From: Bacteroidota bacterium
GTDB lineage: Bacteria > Bacteroidota > Rhodothermia > JANXDC01
Reading direction: 5' to 3'
NCBI GenBank assembly: GCA_025059945.1
Contig: JANXDC010000016.1
Span: forward strand, 62,001 to 126,000
DNA length: 64,000 bases
Of the stretch, positions 12,594-50,984 are shown one piece after another. Within the stretch, counting starts at the first letter, position 1; each line of letters opens with the position of its first letter. A program made the position numbers and the translations under genes. The notes beneath the pieces are model-generated. The model searched no databases, was not told where the DNA came from, and was given only the letters and a program-made list of their open reading frames with translations.

Positions 12594-13028
12594 ATGCCCC
12601 GAAGCTTAAATAAGGTGATGATCATCGGCAACTTGGGGGCCGATCCCGAGCTGCGCTATACCCCTCAGGGCACGGCGGTCTGTACGATCCGCGTGGCCAC
12701 CAACGAGGTCTTTAAAGACAGCAGCGGGCAGCTGCAGGAGCGCACCGAATGGCACTCGGTGGTCTTGTGGGGCCGGCAGGCTGAGATCGCAGCCGAGTAT
12801 CTGCGCAAGGGGCGTAAGGTATTTATCGAGGGCAGCCTACAGACCCGCTCCTGGGAGGATCAGGCCGGAAACCGGCGTTACGCAACCGAAATCCGCGCCC
12901 GCGAGTTGATCCTGCTCGATTCCCGTGAAAGCCCCTCCGAGGCAGGAGAAGTGGGCCGCACGGGCTCGTTTCCGTCTGAGCCGCCGACCGATTTTTCTGT
13001 GGAAGAGGACGACGGGCTGCCCTTTTAG
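12594..13028 (+). CDS. ssb: Single-stranded DNA-binding protein
   Basis: Coats single-stranded DNA in replication, recombination and repair and recruits partners through its tail. The 144 residues contain an OB fold ([59 protein letters not shown]) followed by a short linker and the canonical acidic tail [17 protein letters not shown] lies ten bases upstream of the ATG. It stands alone after the acyl-CoA synthetase and converges on the symporter pair. Standard in every respect. Confidence 0.96.
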
Positions 13029-17335: not shown

Positions 17336-17755
17336 GTGAAGGTATCTTGCAAAAACCTGATCTCGATCTTGGGGCTCTGGACCTGGGAGCTTCCGAATAC
17401 GCTCTGCTCGCTATTGTTGTTGTCCGTTGTGCGCTGCCTCTGGGGCCGGAGGGCGCTCTTGTATCGGTATCGCGCCGCTTGGGTGCTCGAGGTGCCCGCT
17501 GGCCGCTCCTGCTGGGGGCTTACGCCCGGCAGGCTCATTCTGCTGCGCGCCGGGTGCGCCAAGCGGCTGCTTGCGCACGAATACGGGCATCTGCGCCAAA
17601 GTCGCGCTCTGGGCCCCCTGTACCTGTGCGTGATCGGGTTGCCCAGCCTGCTGCATGCGGCCGTAAGCCGACTTCTGCGATGGCCCCGGCATCGGTATCT
17701 GCGCTTTTACACCGAAGCCTGGGCGGAGGCGTGGAAGCTGGATGAACGGACCTAA
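17336..17755 (+). CDS. Small membrane protein with HEYGH motif, putative metallopeptidase-like
   Basis: A 139-residue protein with two or three hydrophobic stretches. Residues 81-85 read HEYGH, an HExxH zinc-binding motif, inside LLAHEYGHLRQSRALGPLYL, followed by a membrane-like VIGLPSLLHAAVSRLL. A Tyr/Glu-bearing YTEAWAEAW near the end could supply a third ligand (Glu). I recall similar small hypothetical proteins in Bacteroidota, but no function is established to my knowledge. It starts with GTG 66 bases from the divergent kinase fusion and its stop overlaps the convergent EndoQ-helicase by four bases. Peptidase activity is an inference from the motif only. Confidence 0.55.
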   Translation: MKVSCKNLISILGLWTWELPNTLCSLLLLSVVRCLWGRRALLYRYRAAWVLEVPAGRSCWGLTPGRLILLRAGCAKRLLAHEYGHLRQSRALGPLYLCVIGLPSLLHAAVSRLLRWPRHRYLRFYTEAWAEAWKLDERT

Positions 17756-20700
17756 AACAGCTTGAGCTGTCGTCCCCCAAGCTCCCCCGGCCGCGTCTCG
17801 AAGCGCTCCCAGCGCGCATGTTCCGCCGGTAGTTCCCGCAGGAAGGAGGAGGGACCCGTGCGGATGCGTTGACCCCGATGGAGGCGGCTGTGCGCGTAGC
17901 TGATCAGCACCTGATCCCGAGCTCGCGTCAGGCCCACGAAAAAGAGCCTGCGCTCTTCGGCCTCCGCTGAGGCCGGTTCGTCGGAGCCGAAGCGCAGGGG
18001 CAGGAGCCCCTCTTCACAACCGATCAGGAACACGGTGCGAAATTCCAGGCCCTTGGCCGCATGCAGCGTAAGCAGCGAGACCCGGTCGGCCCGTCTATCC
18101 CAAAAGTCCACCTCCGTGCTCAGCGCAAGCGCGTTCCAGAAGTCCTCCTCTCCGCGCTCCCGGGCTAGCTGTTTGAGGCGCTCCAGCCACAACATGCGCT
18201 CCGGATCCACGGGGAGGGTTTGCTCCAAATCGCAAAGCCTTTGCAGTAGGGGGCCGCCTGCGGCGCCAAGCGCGTCCATGAGCGCCCTTACCACGGGATG
18301 CTCCGCTACGGGGCGGTGCGTACGCTTCTGATACGGAATGCCCGCCCGCGCCAAGGCCTCCTCAAGCGGTTCGGCTTGCGCTTCTGTGCGGTAAAGCACG
18401 GCGAAATCGCCAAAGCTTTCTTGGGCCGCGGGCATCTTTTCGGCCTGAGGCACGGCCTCAAGCCGCACACCGCCAACGCGGCGCTCGATCTCGCGCGCTA
18501 CCCAGGCCGCTTCGGCCGTCTCGTTTGGAAAGCCGCGTATCCAAACCGGCGGTCCGGAGCCGCGGACGGCTTGGAGGACTCTACGAGGCCGCAGCGAAAC
18601 GGGGGCCACCACCTGCAGGGCGCAGGCCAAAATAGGGGCGCTGTTGCGGTAGTTGCGCCCAAGCTCCGCGCTTAAAGCCCCCGGAAAGTCTTGTAAAAAC
18701 TGCGCAAAGAAGCGCACATCCCCACCGCGAAAGCCGTAGATGGCCTGATCCGGATCGCCGATGGCCAGCAGCCGCGTCTTAGGCCCCACGAGGGCGCGCA
18801 AAAATCGGTATTGCTCCGGATCCAGGTCCTGGTATTCGTCCACGGCCACCGCCCAGTAGGTGGCCTGCACGCAGGCCCGCACCGCCGAGTCGGTTTCCAG
18901 AAGCCGGATGGCGCGCTCCAGGAGCTCCTCGACATCTAGCAAACCCTGCTCCCAAAGCCGCGCCCGCCAGCGCAGGACGTCGGCCCTGGCGGCCTTCCGC
19001 AGCCGGATGCGAGCCCGGACCTGGTTTTCCCGAAACACCTCCACGGCGGCCTGAAGTCGTTCGGCCTCGGTCGCCACCCGAATGGGACGTTTGAGGCCGG
19101 CGTGCTCCGCAAACCGGTCGAGCACGATCAGGGCAAGTCCGTGAAAGGTGGTGGTCGTTACGCGGTGCCCGTCCTCAAGGATGGCCGACAGGCGCCGCCG
19201 CAGCTCTTCGGCAGCCCGGCGGGTGAAGGTGATCGCCACGCAGGCCTCCGCCGCGATGCCCTCGGTTTGTATGAGGCGCGCAATCCAGTGCGTTAGCAGG
19301 CGCGTCTTGCCCGTGCCCGGACCGGCCTCCACGAGCAGGGCGCGGCAAGAGGCCGATAGGATGCGTGCTTGCTCAGGATCCAGCTCCGAAACCTGGGCCT
19401 CGGGCTCCTGGGACTCGGGTTGGGCTTCCGAGGCGTCCTTCTGAGGCCGCGCCACAGGGCCAGGCAAGCGCTCCGTGGGCTTCGAAAAGGCGAACAGGAC
19501 ACCCCCTTGCAGTTGGGCTCGTTCCTCAGGCCGAAACAGCCGAATGACCCCGTATTGGCCGTCAAAGCCGGGCTCTCGCAGCACGCGGCCGTTTCGCATC
19601 CGATTAAGGGCCTCGTCGAGCAACGGGGGGCCAATGCGGCGTACGTCTTCCAAGGGGGCTTCGCGCAGGATCACGAGCTCCGGCCCCAGGGCTCGAAGCA
19701 GGCGCTCGTATGATCTTTGTACGGCCCTGCTGGCGGGCGCGCTGTCGAGCAGTTCGGCCAGCACCTCTTCCAGGGGCACTAGGCTCTCAAAGCGGGCCGC
19801 CCCCGGAGGCGGCTCCGGTCGGGTTCGGTCCGCCAGTTCCTCGACCCGATGCAGCACGCCGATCGTAAGGGGGCGGCCGCAGGCGGGGCAGCGCCCCTCT
19901 AAGGCGCGCGTTTGGGTCGGTTCCAGGCGCACCCCGCAGGCCCGGTGGCCGTCTAGGTGATACTTGCCCTCTTCGGGGAAGAACTCCACCGTACCCCCGT
20001 GCCCTTGGCCGGTCTGGAGGGCGCGTCGGATGGCGAAGTAGTCCAGTTCCGTCTCAAACCGACAGGCTTCGCGTCCCACTTTGCCAGGGGAGTGGGCGTC
20101 GGAGTTCGACACCAGCCGGTAGCCGTCTAGAGCCGACCAGCGCCAGTTCATCGGGGGATCGGAGGAGAGGCCGGTTTCCAGGGCGAAGATGTGCGCCGTC
20201 AGCTCTCCGTAGGCCTCCTCCAGCCGATCGAAGCCCGATTGCGAGCCGAAAACGGAGAACCAGGGGGTCCAGATGTGGGCGGGTATGAGGTAGGACCCCT
20301 CGCCAGAGGTCAGGACCAGCTCCAACAGATCGCGGCTGTCCAGCCCCAAAATAGGGCGGCCGTCTGCGGCCAGGTTGCCGATGCGGGCCAGCGCCGCGCA
20401 CAGCCGCTCGGCGCTCTCCCAATCCGGCACGTAAACCAGATGATGTACCTTACGCACCCGGCCGTCTTTTTTGTAGATGGTGGAAAGCTCCACCTGAAGC
20501 AAAAAGCGCACATCCGATACGCCGGGCGCTTGGGCTTCCAGAACGCGGCCTATGTCCGATCGCAACCGGAACAGGCCCGGCTCGGCGGGTTCTAGTTTCT
20601 GGCGTAGCTCTTGTCGCCAGGCCGGATGGGTAAAATCACCCGTGCCGAGCACGCGTACCCCTTTGCGGGCCGCCGCCATAGCCAGGTGCTCGAGATCCAA

Positions 20701-20760
20701 GTCCCGGCTTGTGGCCCGCGAGTACTTGGAGTGCACGTGCAAGTCCGCGTAAAACGTCAT
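17752..20760 (-). CDS. EndoQ-type PHP endonuclease fused to UvrD/Rep-family helicase
   Basis: A 1002-residue fusion. Residues 1 to about 400 match Endonuclease Q: PHP metal motifs DLHVHSKYS (6-14), GTGDFTHPAW, IPAHIWTPWFS and SNSDAHSP, then the EndoQ zinc module HRACG...CPACG (Cys291, Cys294) and TIGVLHRVEELADR. EndoQ nicks DNA 5' of uracil, hypoxanthine, xanthine or abasic sites. After a Glu/Pro-rich linker (about 420-460) a superfamily 1A helicase follows: Walker A GPGTGKT (Lys485), DEYQD (641-645), GDPDQAIYGFRGG, LGRNYRNS, LTLHAAKGLEF and VGLTRARDQVL. The helicase is compact for UvrD. Both halves look intact, so coupled incision and unwinding in deaminated-base repair is a reasonable inference. 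Confidence 0.88.
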   Translation of the reverse strand: MTFYADLHVHSKYSRATSRDLDLEHLAMAAARKGVRVLGTGDFTHPAWRQELRQKLEPAEPGLFRLRSDIGRVLEAQAPGVSDVRFLLQVELSTIYKKDGRVRKVHHLVYVPDWESAERLCAALARIGNLAADGRPILGLDSRDLLELVLTSGEGSYLIPAHIWTPWFSVFGSQSGFDRLEEAYGELTAHIFALETGLSSDPPMNWRWSALDGYRLVSNSDAHSPGKVGREACRFETELDYFAIRRALQTGQGHGGTVEFFPEEGKYHLDGHRACGVRLEPTQTRALEGRCPACGRPLTIGVLHRVEELADRTRPEPPPGAARFESLVPLEEVLAELLDSAPASRAVQRSYERLLRALGPELVILREAPLEDVRRIGPPLLDEALNRMRNGRVLREPGFDGQYGVIRLFRPEERAQLQGGVLFAFSKPTERLPGPVARPQKDASEAQPESQEPEAQVSELDPEQARILSASCRALLVEAGPGTGKTRLLTHWIARLIQTEGIAAEACVAITFTRRAAEELRRRLSAILEDGHRVTTTTFHGLALIVLDRFAEHAGLKRPIRVATEAERLQAAVEVFRENQVRARIRLRKAARADVLRWRARLWEQGLLDVEELLERAIRLLETDSAVRACVQATYWAVAVDEYQDLDPEQYRFLRALVGPKTRLLAIGDPDQAIYGFRGGDVRFFAQFLQDFPGALSAELGRNYRNSAPILACALQVVAPVSLRPRRVLQAVRGSGPPVWIRGFPNETAEAAWVAREIERRVGGVRLEAVPQAEKMPAAQESFGDFAVLYRTEAQAEPLEEALARAGIPYQKRTHRPVAEHPVVRALMDALGAAGGPLLQRLCDLEQTLPVDPERMLWLERLKQLARERGEEDFWNALALSTEVDFWDRRADRVSLLTLHAAKGLEFRTVFLIGCEEGLLPLRFGSDEPASAEAEERRLFFVGLTRARDQVLISYAHSRLHRGQRIRTGPSSFLRELPAEHARWERFETRPGELGGRQLKLF

Positions 20761-40009: not shown

Positions 40010-40039
40010 CTTTCATAACCAAACGACTTGCCCCGTGAC

Positions 40040-43000
40040 ATGCCGGAGCACAGCAGCAAGCGGGCGCCGATGGGCCGGCTCCTGGGGTTGGTCTTGATCG
40101 CGGGCTGTTCCCTTTGGGCGTTGGGCGCGCCTCGAATCCCGCTCAGGGCCCATTCGACCTCGGGAGAGGCGGATACGCTTTCGCCTGTCCGCAGCTTTGG
40201 AGCCGATACGGGCCGCGCCCAAGAGCCCCTGCTTCGGTATCGGATGCGCCCGTACTGGGTAAGCCCTCTTTTCCCCGTTCGCGTCGAACCCCTGGCCGCC
40301 CTGCCTGCGCCGCGTTCCGTGTGGCGCCATGAGCTGTCGCCGGATTCTCTGTACAGCCGTTTTACGGCGCGCGAGACTGTATCGGGCCTGACCGTGCGGG
40401 TACCCCTTACGGTGGACTACCTCACGTATTGGCGGGAGCGCAGGCGCTATGAGATCGCGCAAACCTGGCGCGAGCTGCTCCGGACGCAGACTCAGGAGCG
40501 GGCCTCGCAGCGGGGTCTGTTGGATCTGCGCATCGCGGTACCCGGGGGCCGCTCCGCGGCCTTTAGCACCCTCTTCGGGGCCCCCACCGTCTCACTGCGT
40601 GTCAACGGGCAGGCCGACGTGGATCTGGGCCTGTCGATTCAGAGCAACCGCGATCCGAACCTGCCCCCCCAGCAGCAGTATCGCATCGATCCCCTCTTTG
40701 GGCAGAACATCCGGCTCGGCATCTCGGGCGGGATCGGGGATAAGCTCACCGTCTCCACCGACTGGGACACGCAGCGTATCCTGGACTTTGAAAACCGGTT
40801 GAAGCTGCAGTATACGGGCTACGAGGACGAGATCATCCGGCGCATCGAGGCCGGCAACGTATCGCTGCAGACGCCCTCCCAGCTCATCGGCGGCGGGCAG
40901 GCGCTTTTCGGGATCCGCTCCGATTTTCAGTTGGGCCCCATGCGCCTATCCTCGGTCTTCAGCCAACAGGAGGGCGAGCGCACCCGCATCGTGCTCGACG
41001 GGGGGGCGGAGACGAACACCTTCGAACTAAAGGCCACGGATTACGAGGACGATACGCACTTCTTGCTGGGCTTTTACTTTCGTCAGCGCTGGGGTGTCGG
41101 ACCTGGACAGGCCTTCAGCCGACCCCCCTCGATCGTGGCCGAGGTGCAAATCACGGACCTCGAAGTTTGGATACTGCGCCAAACCCAACAACGGCTCCAG
41201 GAAAACGAGCGCGACGCCGTGGCCCTGCTTGAGCTCGGCGAAGCGGGTTCGGATCGCCCCCCCAATCCGGCCGCGGACCGGTTTTCGGACGTCGACTTGG
41301 ATCGGCTGCGCACGGCGGACAACGTAACGGACATCCTGGAGCGCCAACTTGGCCTCAATCCGCGCACCTACGTGCAGGGCACGTTTTTGCGCCTGGACCC
41401 CGGGCGTGACTACACTTTTGATCCCAACCTGGGCTATCTGACGTTGCGCACCAGCTTGTCCGGCTTTCAAGCCCTGGCTGTGGCTTACCGGTACGTGGAC
41501 GCCGCCGGCAGGGCCGTCGAGGTTGGAGACTTCGCCCGCGGCGGGGGGTCGAGCGGAACCCAGACGAACCGACTCGTGCTTAAGCTCATTCGGCCCACGA
41601 ACCCCGTGCCCAGCGATCCCTCCTGGGATCTGGTGCTGCGCAACATCTACCGGCTGCCCAGCCGCAACTTCCGACGCGAGGAGCTGCAACTGGATATCGT
41701 ATACCGAAAACCCGGCACCCCGGAGCAGCGCACGCTGCCCGGCGTGGCGATCCGCGGTCGGGACGGACGGTCTGTTTCCCTGTTGCAGCTGACGGCTCTA
41801 GACCGGCTCAACGACAACCTGGCCCCTCAGCCCGATGACCGCTTTGATTTTCTGCCCGGTTATACGATCGACGAGCGCGAAGGCCGGCTCCTGTTTCCGG
41901 TCCTGGAGCCCTTCGGGGAGGCGATCCGAAACGCCATCAGAAGCACGGCCGCGGATCGGGAGCTGGAGAACACGCTGGTCTTTGACGCCTTGTACCGGGA
42001 GACCAAGGTCGAGGCCCGACGCGATCCGCGCGACCTCTACGTGATTAAGGGCGAATCCCGGGGGTCGGTGCGCCAGCAGTACAACCTGGGTGCCGGCCTG
42101 GGCGGGGTTGTCGAGGGAAGCATCCGCGTCCTAAGCGGCGGCGTCGTCGTGCCTCCCTCCGCCTACACGGTCGACTACATAACGGGCACGATCACTTTTA
42201 CGGATCCCACTTACCTGCAACCCGGCCGTCAGATCATAGTAGAGTTTGAACAGCAGAGGGCCTTTCAGCTGCAGCGCAAAACCCTACTGGGCCTGCGGGC
42301 CGACTATGAGCCCGCAGAGCAATTTAGATTAGGCGGTACGCTAATCCGGCTGGGCGAGCAGCCCATCGCCGACAAAAACCGCATCGGCGAGGAGCCAGTC
42401 CGAAACCTCATCTGGGGGTTGGACGGCAGCTACACGGCCGAACCCTCCTGGCTCACGCGTCTGGTGGACGCGCTGCCCCTCGTGCAGACCCGCGCACCTT
42501 CGCGGATCCAGCTGCGCGGTGAGTTTGCCCAGCTCATACCGGGCTTTGCCAGCACCCCTTTAGTGCGCCAGACGCAGGATCGCCTGCGGCGCCAAGGCTA
42601 TGCGGTGCCTAGGGATGAGCGCCAAGGGATCTCCTACATTGACGACTTCGAGGGCGTTCGCAGCGCCGTATCCTTTCTCAACCCCGGCATGTGGCGTCTG
42701 GCCAGCGTTCCGGATTCGATCGGCCGCGTGCGGGGCAGCACAGCTCTGGATGATTCGCTTAAGAGCAACTGGCGCGCCTGGCTTTCTTGGTATGCGATCC
42801 CCCTTCAGCTTTACGGACAGGACAAGGCCGCGCTGGGGCCCGAGACCTGGCCCCTGCAGCAGCGTCAGCTTTTTCCGGAGCGGCAGGTTCAGCGCGGACA
42901 GGACTACTTGCAGCCCCTGGATCTCTGGTATCTGCCCCAGGAGCGCGGGCCTTACAACTACACGCGCGATCTGCTGGCCTTCAAGGCCAACCCCCGTTCC

Positions 43001-46000
43001 GCTTGGGCCGGGATCATGACGCGCATCCCGGATGGTTACAACAACTTCGAAATCAACAACATCGAGTTTCTGGAGTTCTGGTTCGCCCCCGTCCTGAGGC
43101 CCGGAGACAAGGGCCGGCTCTACATCGAGATCGGCTACATCAGCGAGGACGTGATCCCCAACGGACAGCTTAACACCGAAGATGGGCTGGACTCGACGGC
43201 AAGCTCTTTTGTGCGCGACCGCTGGGGCAAGATCTCGCGCGGTATCAAGGACCAGCTGCTGTCCAACGACCCCCGGTTGCGTGCCTACGAAGACGTGGGC
43301 CTAGATGGGCTGCGCGATGAGGAGGAGCGCGTTCAATTTCGGGACTTTCTGGAGGCCGTGCGTCGTCAGTTCGGCGAGGGCTCTCCGGAGTACGAGCGCG
43401 CCCGGCTTGATCCGTCCAACGACAACTACCGCTACTATCTCGATCCCGCTTTTCCGGCCGAGGCCGGTTGGCAGGAGCGCTTTCGACGCTACCACCCGGG
43501 ACTGGAGGGCAACGCCCCTCTGAACCGGGCCGGGATCCTGGGCTCGACGAAGTTTCCGGACACCGAGGACCTCAACGGCAACAACGCTCTGGATACGCGC
43601 AACGCGTACTTTCAATACGAACTGGAGCTAGACCCTCAGCGTCTGGTCCCGGGCTCGGGCTACGTGGTCGACCGCCGGGAGGTGGAGATCGGAGGGGTGC
43701 GCCAGAGCTGGTATCTGGTGCGCATTCCGCTTGCGCAGTACAGGCGTCGTGTGGGGGACATTCGGGATTTCAAGGTCGTCGAGGCCCTTCGGCTTTGGCT
43801 TACGGGCTTTGAGCAGCCCGTCACCTTGCGCTTTGCCACCCTGGAGCTTGTCGGCAGCCAGTGGACGCGCCTCAACGTGGGCACGCAAAACCCGGATACG
43901 CGCTTTGAGGTGGCCACGATCAACATCGAGGAAAACGCTGCGCGCACGCCCATCCCCTACAAGAGCCCTCCGGGGGCCATTCGGCCCGTCGACCGGACGA
44001 CGCTGGAGCAGATTCAGCGCAACGAACAGGCCCTGGTGCTGCGCGTGCAGAACCTGTATCGGGGCGATATGCGGGCAATCTTCAGGACCTTCGGCGGGCT
44101 CAACCTGCTGCGCTACTCCAACCTGCGCATGGACGTGCACGGAGAGGGCTATGAGCGACCGGAGGAGGCGGAGCTGTTCATCCGCATCGGATCCGATCTG
44201 CGGCGTGACTACTACGAATACCGCCAGCCCATCAAGCCCACCCCCGTGTTGCCCGGGGGGCCTGGTGCCTACACGCCGGAGCTGATTTGGCCGGCTGAAA
44301 ACCAGGTGAACATCCAAATCGAACGGCTTAATGCGCTCAAGCAGCTGCGGGATCGGCTGGGCATACCGGAGGATTCGCTCTTTGGCGGCTCCGCCCTGTT
44401 GGACTACGAGGGCGCTCCCCCGGGGGCCAGCCTGTACATCCGGGGCCGGCCCAGCCTGAGTCAGGTCACCAAGCTCGCCATCGGGATCCTCAACCCCCGA
44501 GACGGGCGGCCCGTGCTGAACGCGGAGTTCTGGGTGAACGAGCTGCGCGTGAGCGGCTTTGACGCCCAGTCCGGTTGGGCGGCTTTGGGCAGCGCCAGCC
44601 TGCAGCTAGCCGACCTGGCGCAGGTGGACTTCAGCCTAGACCGCCGCACCGAGGGCTTTGGCTCGGTCGAGAGCCGGCTTGAAGAACGGGGCCGTGAGGA
44701 TCGATTCAATTGGTCTTTGAGCTCGCGCTGGTCTCTGGAGCGGCTGCTGCCGGCCCGATATGGCTGGCAGATCCCGCTTTCGATCGCCTGGCAGCGGGCC
44801 CGTACGACGCCTACCTACGCGCCCGGAGCCGGCGCGGATGTGCGCTTGGCGACGATCCGCAGCCTCATCGAACGCGACACGGCGCTTACGCCCGCGCAGC
44901 GACGGGCCCGGATTGACTCCCTCTATGAAGCCGCCCGCACCCTGCGAGAGGCTCGATCGATCGCCCTGCCGGGGATCCGCAAAGCGGGCTCCGAACATCC
45001 CGCAGCGCGCCTCCTGCTTGATCCTCTGGGGCTGCAGTTCGCCTACGCCGAGGAGCTGGCCTCTAGCCCCTCGGTGCTCTTCGACCGCCGCTGGCAGTGG
45101 TCCGGTGGCGCCCAATACCAGCTCAGCTTCCCGCAAGCGGCCCCTGTGCGGCCGTTTGCGTTTCTGCGCCGCGTGCCCGTATTGGGCTGGTTGGCCCACC
45201 TGGAGTGGAACTACATGCCGAGCTCCCTGCTGCTGCAGGCGGGGTTGCAGCGCACCGTGATGCGCGCGCAGGATCGTCCGAGCGAGGCCGATCTGCGCCG
45301 ACAGCCCGGATGGCCCTCCTCTGCCCTTAAGCCGATTCGCGAGACGCATCAGTTTCAGTACCGCCAGGGGATGGGGCTGCAGTACAACCCGTTGCCCTTC
45401 CTAGGCCTAAGCTATGCTTACAACGGACAGACCAGCCTGGCCGCCCTGGGGGTGGATACGCTCCTCCTTCGGCTTCGGGATACGCTCACGGTCCGGCGCC
45501 TGCGCGCGCTTTCGGAGCGCGCCATCTGGGAGCGACTCTGGGACCGGCACCCGGGGATCCGGCCGGAATCCTACAGCCAAAACTTGTCGGCCACCTTCAA
45601 TCCGCGCCTGAACGCCTATCGGGCCCTGCGCTGGCTGGGGCTTTCGGCCGCCTATACGGCGGACTTCCTCTGGAACAACGGACCGACCGGCGACAGCACC
45701 GGAGCCCAGATCGCCAACCAGATGGACGTGCGCGTAAACGGCCAGCTGCGCATCGGCGAGCTGTGGAGCACAGCGCGCTGGTATCAGCAATTGCAGGCCT
45801 GGGACCGGGGCCCCAAACCGCCAGAGCCCATCTGGAAGCGCCTCTACAAGCGGCTCCTTGTGACGCTAACCAGCCTACGGCAATTGGATTTGACCTTTGT
45901 GCAGCGTCAACAGGCGCGCAACGCCGGCTTCCCTGGGCCGGCGGGGCTAGCCGATCTTTTCCAAGACCAACCCCAGCGTCGCTCTCCGTCCTTGGCCTAT

Positions 46001-47188
46001 CGGCTGGGCTGGACGCGCGCGCCCGATCCGGAACAGCGGGTGCGCGTAGCGGGCGTTCGGTTTCTGGACAGCTGGCAGCAGACGCGCCAGCTGGGAGCGC
46101 GCACCAGCCTATCGCCGTCGAACAACCTCCGGATCGATTTGAACTGGGACGCCCAGTGGCAGCAGAACCTGCAAAACGCCGTAAGCTTTGACCCCGGCCG
46201 GCGGGCCTTTCAGGAGGCCCTCACCCAGGAGGGACAGCTCACGCTCACCACCTGGGGCGTTGTGGGCTCTTATGCGAAACTGTTTCAAGCTCAATGGCGG
46301 CGCCTGCAGGAGGACGGCGTACAGGCCGGAGAGGTGACGGATCGCAACGGCGATGGCCTGGTGGTCGGTTCCGCCCCCTCGCTGCTGCGCGACTTTCAGC
46401 GCGTCTTCGGGGGGCCTATCGGCTCCTGGCTTGACTCACGGGGCCTGCCCGTTCTGCCGTGGCCCAACTGGCAGGTGATTTGGGTCGGCCTGGAGCAGCT
46501 GGGGCCGCTTCGTCGGCTGGCCAGCTCGATCGTGCTCCGGCATGGCTACACAGGCCAGTATCAGGGCGGCTGGCGTCGGAACATCAACGCCGGCGAGGGA
46601 CTTAGCTACCGCATCGGGGGCATCCGGGTGCGGGACGTGGTACCCCTGTATGAGGCGCGCGATCTTGCGATCGCGCAGCGCTTCGCCCCGCTCCTTGGGC
46701 TCAGCGCCACCTGGAAAGGCGATGTGCGCACAGAGCTCACCTACAACTGGGCGCGCGTCATCTCGATAAGCTTTTCGAACGCAAACGTCAACATCCGCCG
46801 CATCGCCGAGCTGAGCGTGCGCGCAAGCTACCGGCGCTCCCGATTTCGGCTTCCGTTTCCGATCCTCGGTATGCGCTCGCTGGAAAACGAGCTCAACGTG
46901 GGCTTAGGGCTCTCCTACAGCCAGGAGGTGCGCGACGTCTACTACCTCAGCCAGGACCTAGATGAGGCCCTGGCCGGCGCGCTGCGCCCGGAGGGGCTTC
47001 GGCCACGCACCAGCGACGGCTCGGCCCGTTGGGTGCTGGAGCCCACGTTGAGTTATGCGTTCTCGACGCGGGTGACGGCCGAGTTTCGGTGGCGCTTGGA
47101 GGACGTCTCGCCCCGGGGCTCTTCGCGCGTGACCCCGTCCACTACCCAGCAGATCGGCTTCAAGATCCGGGTTGGCATCACATCCTAA
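40040..47188 (+). CDS. sprA: SprA, type IX secretion system outer-membrane translocon
   Basis: Giant outer-membrane beta barrel through which the type IX secretion system exports proteins. About 2382 residues, matching the known 2300-2500 range of SprA/Sov. After a signal region (LLGLVLIAGCSLWALGA) come SprA landmarks: VDYLTYWRERRRYEIAQTWR, GNVSLQTPSQLIGGGQALFG, DWDTQRILDFENRLKL, ISYIDDFEGVR and PDTEDLNGNNALD; the second half is alternating beta-strand sequence ending IGFKIRVGITS. The ATG at 40040 or a second at 40070 could be the start. The frame is uninterrupted for over 7 kb. No other T9SS gene (gldKLMN, porV) lies in the window. Confidence 0.92.
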   Translation: MPEHSSKRAPMGRLLGLVLIAGCSLWALGAPRIPLRAHSTSGEADTLSPVRSFGADTGRAQEPLLRYRMRPYWVSPLFPVRVEPLAALPAPRSVWRHELSPDSLYSRFTARETVSGLTVRVPLTVDYLTYWRERRRYEIAQTWRELLRTQTQERASQRGLLDLRIAVPGGRSAAFSTLFGAPTVSLRVNGQADVDLGLSIQSNRDPNLPPQQQYRIDPLFGQNIRLGISGGIGDKLTVSTDWDTQRILDFENRLKLQYTGYEDEIIRRIEAGNVSLQTPSQLIGGGQALFGIRSDFQLGPMRLSSVFSQQEGERTRIVLDGGAETNTFELKATDYEDDTHFLLGFYFRQRWGVGPGQAFSRPPSIVAEVQITDLEVWILRQTQQRLQENERDAVALLELGEAGSDRPPNPAADRFSDVDLDRLRTADNVTDILERQLGLNPRTYVQGTFLRLDPGRDYTFDPNLGYLTLRTSLSGFQALAVAYRYVDAAGRAVEVGDFARGGGSSGTQTNRLVLKLIRPTNPVPSDPSWDLVLRNIYRLPSRNFRREELQLDIVYRKPGTPEQRTLPGVAIRGRDGRSVSLLQLTALDRLNDNLAPQPDDRFDFLPGYTIDEREGRLLFPVLEPFGEAIRNAIRSTAADRELENTLVFDALYRETKVEARRDPRDLYVIKGESRGSVRQQYNLGAGLGGVVEGSIRVLSGGVVVPPSAYTVDYITGTITFTDPTYLQPGRQIIVEFEQQRAFQLQRKTLLGLRADYEPAEQFRLGGTLIRLGEQPIADKNRIGEEPVRNLIWGLDGSYTAEPSWLTRLVDALPLVQTRAPSRIQLRGEFAQLIPGFASTPLVRQTQDRLRRQGYAVPRDERQGISYIDDFEGVRSAVSFLNPGMWRLASVPDSIGRVRGSTALDDSLKSNWRAWLSWYAIPLQLYGQDKAALGPETWPLQQRQLFPERQVQRGQDYLQPLDLWYLPQERGPYNYTRDLLAFKANPRSAWAGIMTRIPDGYNNFEINNIEFLEFWFAPVLRPGDKGRLYIEIGYISEDVIPNGQLNTEDGLDSTASSFVRDRWGKISRGIKDQLLSNDPRLRAYEDVGLDGLRDEEERVQFRDFLEAVRRQFGEGSPEYERARLDPSNDNYRYYLDPAFPAEAGWQERFRRYHPGLEGNAPLNRAGILGSTKFPDTEDLNGNNALDTRNAYFQYELELDPQRLVPGSGYVVDRREVEIGGVRQSWYLVRIPLAQYRRRVGDIRDFKVVEALRLWLTGFEQPVTLRFATLELVGSQWTRLNVGTQNPDTRFEVATINIEENAARTPIPYKSPPGAIRPVDRTTLEQIQRNEQALVLRVQNLYRGDMRAIFRTFGGLNLLRYSNLRMDVHGEGYERPEEAELFIRIGSDLRRDYYEYRQPIKPTPVLPGGPGAYTPELIWPAENQVNIQIERLNALKQLRDRLGIPEDSLFGGSALLDYEGAPPGASLYIRGRPSLSQVTKLAIGILNPRDGRPVLNAEFWVNELRVSGFDAQSGWAALGSASLQLADLAQVDFSLDRRTEGFGSVESRLEERGREDRFNWSLSSRWSLERLLPARYGWQIPLSIAWQRARTTPTYAPGAGADVRLATIRSLIERDTALTPAQRRARIDSLYEAARTLREARSIALPGIRKAGSEHPAARLLLDPLGLQFAYAEELASSPSVLFDRRWQWSGGAQYQLSFPQAAPVRPFAFLRRVPVLGWLAHLEWNYMPSSLLLQAGLQRTVMRAQDRPSEADLRRQPGWPSSALKPIRETHQFQYRQGMGLQYNPLPFLGLSYAYNGQTSLAALGVDTLLLRLRDTLTVRRLRALSERAIWERLWDRHPGIRPESYSQNLSATFNPRLNAYRALRWLGLSAAYTADFLWNNGPTGDSTGAQIANQMDVRVNGQLRIGELWSTARWYQQLQAWDRGPKPPEPIWKRLYKRLLVTLTSLRQLDLTFVQRQQARNAGFPGPAGLADLFQDQPQRRSPSLAYRLGWTRAPDPEQRVRVAGVRFLDSWQQTRQLGARTSLSPSNNLRIDLNWDAQWQQNLQNAVSFDPGRRAFQEALTQEGQLTLTTWGVVGSYAKLFQAQWRRLQEDGVQAGEVTDRNGDGLVVGSAPSLLRDFQRVFGGPIGSWLDSRGLPVLPWPNWQVIWVGLEQLGPLRRLASSIVLRHGYTGQYQGGWRRNINAGEGLSYRIGGIRVRDVVPLYEARDLAIAQRFAPLLGLSATWKGDVRTELTYNWARVISISFSNANVNIRRIAELSVRASYRRSRFRLPFPILGMRSLENELNVGLGLSYSQEVRDVYYLSQDLDEALAGALRPEGLRPRTSDGSARWVLEPTLSYAFSTRVTAEFRWRLEDVSPRGSSRVTPSTTQQIGFKIRVGITS

Positions 47189-50537: not shown

Positions 50538-50984
50538 ATGGTGGAGATCCGCGTGCGTCGGCTCCCTCACGCTGGCCAATGGGCGCTCCCGGAATACGCC
50601 ACCGAAGGGGCGGCCGGGTTGGATCTGCGGGCGGCCATCGAGGAGCCTATTCGGCTCGAGCCGGGCCAACGAGCCCTTGTGCCCACGGGCATCGCTTTGG
50701 CGCTTCCTTCGGGCTTCGAGGCGCAGGTGCGGCCTCGAAGCGGCCTGGCGCTGCGGCATGGCGTGACCGTGCTCAACGCTCCGGGTACGATCGATAGCGA
50801 TTACCGAGGCGAAGTGCAGGTTATCTTGATCAACCTTGGACAAGAGCCCTTCACGATTCAGCCCGGGGAGCGGATCGCCCAACTGGTCATAGCCCGCTAC
50901 GCACGCGTGCGCTGGGCCGTGGTGTCGGAGCTCGAGGAGTCCGCCCGCGGCGCCGGCGGATTCGGACACACAGGACGCCTCTGA
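50538..50984 (+). CDS. dut: dUTP diphosphatase
   Basis: Hydrolyses dUTP to dUMP, limiting uracil in DNA. The 148 residues carry all five trimeric dUTPase motifs: [41 protein letters not shown] and [10 protein letters not shown]. It follows ald closely. In the same window an EndoQ-type uracil-recognising nuclease is encoded, so uracil control and uracil repair are both represented, though the genes are far apart. Confidence 0.96.

What the first reader, a model, noticed from the sequence alone, without database searches (positions are those of the whole stretch)
17752..20760. EndoQ-type deaminated-base nuclease fused to a UvrD-like helicase
The amino half has the PHP metal motifs and the zinc module typical of Endonuclease Q, and the carboxy half has all helicase motifs of superfamily 1A. 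A single protein that nicks beside uracil, hypoxanthine, xanthine or abasic sites and then unwinds from the nick would be a self-contained repair machine. EndoQ is best known in archaea and a few Bacillales. The same window encodes dUTPase, the preventive arm against uracil in DNA. A hot or oxidising habitat would raise deamination load, but habitat is not shown by the sequence.
Basis: partly seen in the sequence, partly recalled or inferred. Interest (0 to 1): 0.75.

Follow-up and report, generated by a model that had tools for sequence, protein, structure and literature searches.

The report
EndoQ nuclease–UvrD helicase fusion protein
This gene joins an enzyme that cuts DNA next to chemically damaged (deaminated) bases to a DNA-unwinding motor, and it ends in a short tag that predicts docking to the replication clamp; the fusion is real, spread patchily over many bacterial phyla, and I found no paper describing it.

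Summary
The minus-strand ORF 17752-20760 (1002 aa) is an intact Endonuclease Q domain (1-413; every PHP ligand and base-discriminating residue of PfuEndoQ conserved) joined by a disordered linker to an SF1A UvrD-like helicase (458-987). Two things change the picture. (1) It is not a local oddity: loci from more than ten bacterial phyla carry the same fusion. Their EndoQ domains form one clade (support 100/100), apart from the archaeal/Bacillus stand-alone type, and their helicases form one clade apart from PcrA/UvrD/Rep. One old fusion with later splits fits best. (2) The fusion nearly always ends in a beta-clamp-binding motif (here QLKLF at the last five residues; 60 of 67 complete fusions, 0 of 20 unfused PcrA/UvrD relatives, 0.1 expected by shuffling). 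Archaeal EndoQ ends in a PCNA-binding box, so clamp tethering appears kept while the tag now follows a motor. Most have a shortened autoinhibitory 2B subdomain. Best reading: a clamp-tethered enzyme nicks 5' of deaminated bases or AP sites and peels off the damaged strand. All catalysis is inferred. 'Self-contained' overstates it: polymerase, flap nuclease and ligase are still needed, and the genome also encodes UDGs, EndoV and dUTPase.

The parts
17752..20760 (-). EndoQ-UvrD fusion gene, 1002 aa plus stop
   Evidence: ORF and translation; homologous fusions in 7 class relatives and 67 complete fusions overall
19522..20760 (-). EndoQ domain, residues 1-413: PHP phosphoesterase core, zinc module and C-terminal helical part
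   Evidence: PDB 5zb8 E=2.4e-49; ligands D6 H8 H10 D42 E91 H106 H162 E195 D221 H223 and pocket residues H162 G197 S199 identical in 67/67 fusions
19876..19959 (-). Zinc module, residues 268-295 (H272, C275, C291, C294)
   Evidence: Aligned to the PfuEndoQ zinc cysteines; first ligand is His here and in 65/67 fusions (Cys in 2); stand-alone EndoQs that could be read have four Cys
19492..19509 (-). Degenerate internal clamp-motif position just after EndoQ (QGGVLF, residues 418-423)
   Evidence: 18 of 67 fusions have a QxxLF-like motif here, e.g. QSSLF in the same-genus genome (L096) and GQKSLF in Desulfobacterota-type fusions; weak in the window itself
19387..19503 (-). Disordered linker, residues 420-458
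   Evidence: pLDDT below 50; variable in length and sequence
17800..19386 (-). SF1A UvrD/PcrA-type helicase, residues 459-987
   Evidence: Pfam PF00580 and PF13361; PDB UvrD/PcrA E=2e-60; fold match
19303..19323 (-). Walker A motif GPGTGKT, residues 480-486
   Evidence: Near-invariant columns in the fusion alignment
18826..18840 (-). Walker B / motif II DEYQD, residues 641-645
   Evidence: D641 E642 Q644 D645 invariant
18109..18327 (-). Shortened 2B subdomain region, residues about 812-884
   Evidence: 113 aa between the two flanking motifs versus 205-210 in PcrA of relatives; pcrA model positions about 373-525 unmatched
17755..17769 (-). C-terminal QLKLF, predicted beta-clamp-binding motif, residues 998-1002
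   Evidence: Motif in 60/67 fusions at or near the end, shuffled mean 0.11, 0 of 20 unfused paralogues; disordered tail 988-1002

Best explanation
A bacterial Endonuclease Q of a distinct, fusion-bearing clade. Step 1 (inferred from homology and conserved residues): the EndoQ half flips out uracil, hypoxanthine, xanthine or an abasic site and cuts the backbone immediately 5' of it, leaving a 3'-OH and a 5'-phosphate. Step 2 (inferred from motif conservation): the protein is held at the beta sliding clamp by its C-terminal QLxLF tail, as archaeal EndoQ is held by PCNA. Step 3 (inferred): the 3'-to-5' SF1A motor, delivered in cis and largely freed from 2B autoinhibition, loads on the unbroken strand at the nick and peels off the 5' lesion-bearing strand while a clamp-bound polymerase extends the 3'-OH; a flap nuclease and ligase finish. 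The architecture, ligands, clades and tail motif are shown; activity, polarity on a nick, clamp binding and the order of steps are not.
For: EndoQ homology over the full length. All catalytic and base-discriminating residues named for PfuEndoQ in PMC4357722 and PMC8307549 are invariant in 67/67 fusions. Helicase motifs conserved. One EndoQ clade (100/100) and one helicase clade (97) indicate joint inheritance. C-terminal clamp motif 60/67, none in 20 unfused paralogues, matching the consensus QL[S/D]LF or QxxLF (PMC12309361). Precedents: the C-terminal PIP box of TkoEndoQ binds PCNA and is needed for its stimulation, and clamp motifs were already noted in bacterial EndoQ C-terminal regions (PMC4858679); a helicase was proposed to act after EndoQ incision (PMC4357722); deleting 2B activates a Rep monomer (PMC13238157); an SF1A helicase-nuclease (RecB) binds the beta clamp (PMC13254535).
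Against: No biochemical data exist for any fusion that I could find. EndoQ identity to Pfu is only about 35%, and one zinc ligand is His instead of Cys. The score is below the curated TIGR00375 cut-off (157.9 versus 326.6 bits). The genome also encodes two UDG-family proteins and EndoV, so the function is at best one of several. Scattered members have lost the helicase, so the motor is dispensable for some. The relative orientation of the two halves is not predicted with confidence (pTM 0.55).
Confidence: 0.6

Rival explanations
1. Dual-incision excision. EndoQ nicks 5' of the deaminated base, EndoV nicks 3' of it, and the fused helicase expels the short lesion-bearing oligonucleotide, as UvrD does after UvrABC. 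Mainly for hypoxanthine.
For: This is the right-hand pathway drawn in PMC4357722 Fig. 10, with removal by a helicase. The window's genome and 6 further of the 9 fusion-bearing genomes tested encode EndoV.
Against: EndoV is absent from two carriers (G032, G156) and present in 4 of 10 non-carriers, so the association is weak. Clamp docking is not needed for this route.
Confidence: 0.15
2. Motor first. The helicase/translocase tracks single-stranded or newly made DNA at forks, delivering EndoQ to uracil in ssDNA or to misincorporated dUMP in the nascent strand, so the motor searches and does not excise.
For: EndoQ enzymes cut ssDNA as well as dsDNA (PMC6202378). The clamp-binding tail suggests fork association. 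SF1A monomers are translocases (PMC13238157).
Against: A shortened 2B predicts unwinding, not only translocation. No fork-coupled data are available.
Confidence: 0.15
3. Defence against foreign DNA that carries uracil or other modified bases, as suggested for Bacillus EndoQ, with a Gabija-like nuclease-helicase logic.
For: The best PADLOC matches of the helicase are GajB profiles. An antiviral role has been suggested for bacterial EndoQ (PMC8307549). The distribution is patchy.
Against: The GajB matches cover only the shared helicase core, and no EndoQ model is hit. No plasmid, phage or viral-contig match was found. No defence genes were seen among the few neighbours searched. Clades that follow phyla exist.
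Confidence: 0.07

Closest known systems
Endonuclease Q (PfuEndoQ PF1551, TkoEndoQ, MacEndoQ, B. pumilus EndoQ; COG1379/TIGR00375)
   Same: Full-length fold, all PHP ligands, base-discriminating pocket residues, zinc module position; a clamp-binding tail exists in archaeal forms
   Different: About 35% identity to Pfu; separate clade (100/100); zinc ligands HCCC instead of CCCC; extra loop (STIYKKDGRVRK); fused to a helicase; clamp motif sits after the helicase
PcrA/UvrD/Rep SF1A helicases
   Same: All core motifs, same fold
   Different: Separate clade (97 SH-aLRT); no C-terminal region matching pcrA positions after about 650, where PcrA/UvrD carry an RNA-polymerase-binding Tudor domain; 2B about 90 aa shorter in most members; C-terminal clamp motif; the genome has its own PcrA-type helicase on contig C4
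EndoQ-PCNA repair complex of Thermococcales (PMC4858679)
   Same: Lesion endonuclease tethered to a sliding clamp by its extreme C-terminus
   Different: Bacterial clamp motif instead of a PIP box, and a motor in between; clamp binding is only predicted here
Gabija GajA/GajB
   Same: Nuclease plus UvrD-like helicase logic
   Different: Nuclease unrelated; single polypeptide; no GajA

Membership tests
Endonuclease Q | PHP metal ligands (Pfu D6 H8 H10 E76 H84 H139 D192 H194) | tested here: met
   Window D6 H8 H10 E91 H106 H162 D221 H223; 67/67 fusions
Endonuclease Q | Base-discriminating pocket His139, Gly169, Ser171 | tested here: met
   H162, G197, S199; 67/67 fusions (residues from PMC8307549)
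Endonuclease Q | Zinc module with four ligands | tested here: met
   H272 C275 C291 C294; one Cys-to-His change shared by 65/67 fusions; zinc binding itself not tested
Endonuclease Q | EndoQ fold over about 400 aa | tested here: met
   5zb8 TM(target) 0.88-0.89, 7k30 0.87
Endonuclease Q | Curated TIGR00375 cut-off (326.6 bits) | tested here: not met
   157.9 bits; 14 of 14 Bacillota genomes carrying stand-alone homologues also miss it, so the cut-off marks a narrow equivalog rather than the fold or function
Endonuclease Q | 5' incision at dU, dI, dX and AP sites | not testable with these tools
   Needs a nicking assay
SF1A UvrD/Rep helicase superfamily | Walker A, Walker B and motifs III-VI | tested here: met
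   Conserved columns; Pfam
PcrA/UvrD orthologue | Curated pcrA cut-off, full 2B, C-terminal region, clade | tested here: not met
   284.8 of 911.2 bits; short 2B; no match beyond pcrA position about 650; own clade
Beta-clamp-binding proteins | Exposed QL[S/D]LF or QxxLF motif | tested here: met
   QLKLF, last five residues, disordered tail; consensus from PMC12309361
Beta-clamp-binding proteins | Physical binding to DnaN | not testable with these tools
   Only single chains from the window and fetched loci could be folded
Gabija | GajA partner | tested here: not met
   The nuclease half is EndoQ; PADLOC hits cover the helicase core only

The most novel reading that the evidence does not exclude
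A second, previously undescribed branch of EndoQ biology: a clamp-tethered nuclease-helicase present patchily in many bacterial phyla that runs incision and strand removal of deaminated bases from one polypeptide, a bacterial route parallel to UDG-initiated base excision repair. Bacterial EndoQ would then be mostly known from only one of its two branches.
Probability: 0.45. Interest if true: 0.75.

Novelty: new variant of a known kind. Interest (0 to 1): 0.57.

Why it matters
The EndoQ literature describes bacterial EndoQ as confined to a few genera and leaves open what happens after the nick. Here an apparently old, widely distributed bacterial EndoQ clade carries a motor in cis and ends in a predicted clamp-docking tag. 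That makes the missing step testable with one protein, and it suggests that clamp tethering of EndoQ is kept or re-evolved across two different clamp-binding motifs. A lesion-triggered nicking helicase would also be a useful reagent.

Tried and rejected
Rejected: an assembly or frameshift artefact (the fusion recurs in many independent genomes). Rejected: a generic PHP phosphatase (full EndoQ fold and pocket). Rejected: a plain PcrA with an insertion (separate clade). Rejected: a Gabija component. The 80 best database hits are ranked by similarity to the query, so they do not estimate frequency; the phylum surveys do. The literature search covers only the open library, so 'no description found' is not proof of absence; two key EndoQ papers were not held.

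Full report
OBSERVATION. The ORF at 17752-20760 (minus strand, ATG start, 1002 aa) is as described. phmmer against the PDB matches residues 4-413 to PfuEndoQ (5zb8, E=2.4e-49; 7k30-7k33 close behind). NCBIfam gives TIGR00375 over 5-406 (E=4.5e-46) and Pfam gives UvrD-helicase and UvrD_C over 460-957. An AlphaFold2 model built from 33 fusions has mean pLDDT 86.4 and pTM 0.55; residues 420-458 and 988-1002 are disordered. Foldseek returns UvrD/PcrA (best TM by target 0.70) and PfuEndoQ (TM by target 0.88-0.89) in the one model.

CATALYTIC RESIDUES. Aligned with Pfu and relatives, every residue reported as essential or pocket-forming in PfuEndoQ (PMC4357722; PMC8307549) is present: D6, H8, H10, E91 (Pfu E76), H106 (H84), H162 (H139), E195 (E167), G197 (G169), S199 (S171), D221 (D192), H223 (H194). 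All are identical in 67 of 67 complete fusions. The zinc module is H272-x2-C275...C291-x2-C294. The first ligand is His in 65 of 67 fusions and Cys in two, whereas the stand-alone Bacillota proteins whose module could be read have Cys.

THE HELICASE. Walker A (GPGTGKT 480-486), DEYQD (641-645) and the later motifs are conserved across fusions. The pcrA model matches up to position 372 and again from about 526 to 646. The gap is the 2B subdomain: 113 aa separate the flanking motifs here, about 107-165 in most fusions, up to 196 in some Desulfobacterota and Clostridia forms, and 205-210 in PcrA of relatives. The pcrA match also stops near position 650, so the C-terminal region where PcrA/UvrD carry an RNA-polymerase-binding Tudor domain is missing (role of that domain from paper titles listed). 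2B is autoinhibitory: its deletion activates the Rep monomer (PMC13238157). The genome has its own PcrA-type helicase (C4, 744-aa frame, E=8e-248), so the fused one is additional.

THE TAIL. The last five residues are QLKLF. The strict pattern Q[LMI]x[LMF][FLIM] occurs within the last 15 residues in 60 of 67 complete fusions, 53 of them at the very end. Several of the rest are near-misses such as QLRLV, QQRLF or QPRLL. Counted within three residues of the end it is 59 of 67, against a mean of 0.11 and a maximum of 3 in 1000 shuffles of the last 60 residues. None of 20 unfused PcrA/UvrD/UvrD2 proteins has it; the three apparent positives in that list are helicase fragments of fusions. QL[S/D]LF or QxxLF is the beta-clamp-binding consensus (PMC12309361). 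In Thermococcales, EndoQ binds PCNA through a C-terminal PIP box and is stimulated by it, and the same paper already noted clamp motifs in bacterial EndoQ C-terminal regions (PMC4858679). What is added here is that in the fusions the motif sits after the motor and is close to universal. A second QxxLF-like motif lies directly after the EndoQ core in 18 of 67 fusions, including the same-genus genome (QSSLF); in the window it is degenerate (QGGVLF).

DISTRIBUTION AND DESCENT. Most of the best 80 are fusions, from Planctomycetota, Pseudomonadota, Myxococcota, Desulfobacterota, Actinomycetota, Elusimicrobiota, Gemmatimonadota, Verrucomicrobiota, Binatota, Chloroflexota, Melainabacteria and Bacillota. 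That list is ranked by similarity to the query and so is biased. Even samples of genomes give: own phylum 9 of 198, all with frames of at least 1004 aa; Bacillota 125 of 250, of which about 39 are of the fused type (about 28 with frames of 847 aa or more, 7 short, 4 cut by contig ends) and the rest are mostly 27-36% identical stand-alones; Actinomycetota 4 of 150 plus one weak match; Planctomycetota 21 of 149, about half with long frames. The EndoQ tree separates the fusion-bearing clade from PfuEndoQ and the Bacillota stand-alones with 100/100 support. Within it, seven unfused and four split members are scattered, needing six changes between fused and unfused in the careful tree. The helicases of the fusions form one clade (SH-aLRT 97) apart from 26 other SF1A helicases. 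One old fusion followed by splits and losses is the simplest reading; repeated fusion of the same two clades is not formally excluded.

MECHANISM. EndoQ leaves a 3'-OH and a 5'-phosphate at a nick 5' of the lesion (PMC4357722). To be useful, a 3'-to-5' motor has to run on the unbroken strand, peeling off the downstream strand that carries the lesion at its 5' end; running on the nicked strand would displace the sound primer instead. Clamp binding offers a way to set that geometry and to hand the 3'-OH to a polymerase. Shown here: architecture, conserved residues, clades, tail motif. Inferred: incision, clamp binding, strand choice, order of events. The genome also encodes dUTPase, two UDG-family proteins and EndoV, so the protein is one of several lines of defence. 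The dual-incision route with EndoV is a live rival.

NOVELTY. Both halves are known families. No NCBIfam model covers the fusion, and no paper in the open library links EndoQ to a UvrD-type fusion. I rate it a new variant of a known kind: a distinct, widespread EndoQ branch with a motor and a predicted clamp tag, awaiting biochemistry.

Noticed in passing
L069 5997-7266 and next ORF; L073 49-1501 and next ORF: EndoQ and the UvrD-like helicase as two overlapping ORFs (overlaps of 26 and 61 nt between stop-to-stop frames) with the clamp motif kept at the end of the second (QLTLF, QLKLF). Either natural split genes or single frameshifts in MAG contigs.
   Followed up: partly
L082 5484-6909; L188 around 2853 of its reverse strand: A single in-frame stop codon between the EndoQ and helicase halves in two Clostridia-type genomes. 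Sequencing error, read-through or recoding not distinguished.
   Followed up: no
L201, L202, L203: Unfused EndoQs of about 52% identity to the window in Bacillota, without a helicase downstream: a lineage that appears to have lost the motor, suited to testing what the motor adds.
   Followed up: partly
window 17336-17755 (+): Convergent 139-aa ORF overlapping the fusion stop by 4 nt, with a metalloprotease-like HEYGH motif but no Pfam match.
   Followed up: no
window 40028-47188 (+): Very large ORF of 2386 aa, not examined.
   Followed up: no
window 12594-13028 (+) and 50538-50984 (+): SSB and dUTPase genes in the same window, on the other strand and about 5 and 30 kb from the fusion; no sign of an operon.
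   Followed up: yes
EndoQ domain across fusions, window residues 92-104: A conserved loop (STIYKKDGRVRK) next to the metal site is present in the fusion clade but absent from PfuEndoQ; it may affect DNA binding or substrate range.
   Followed up: no
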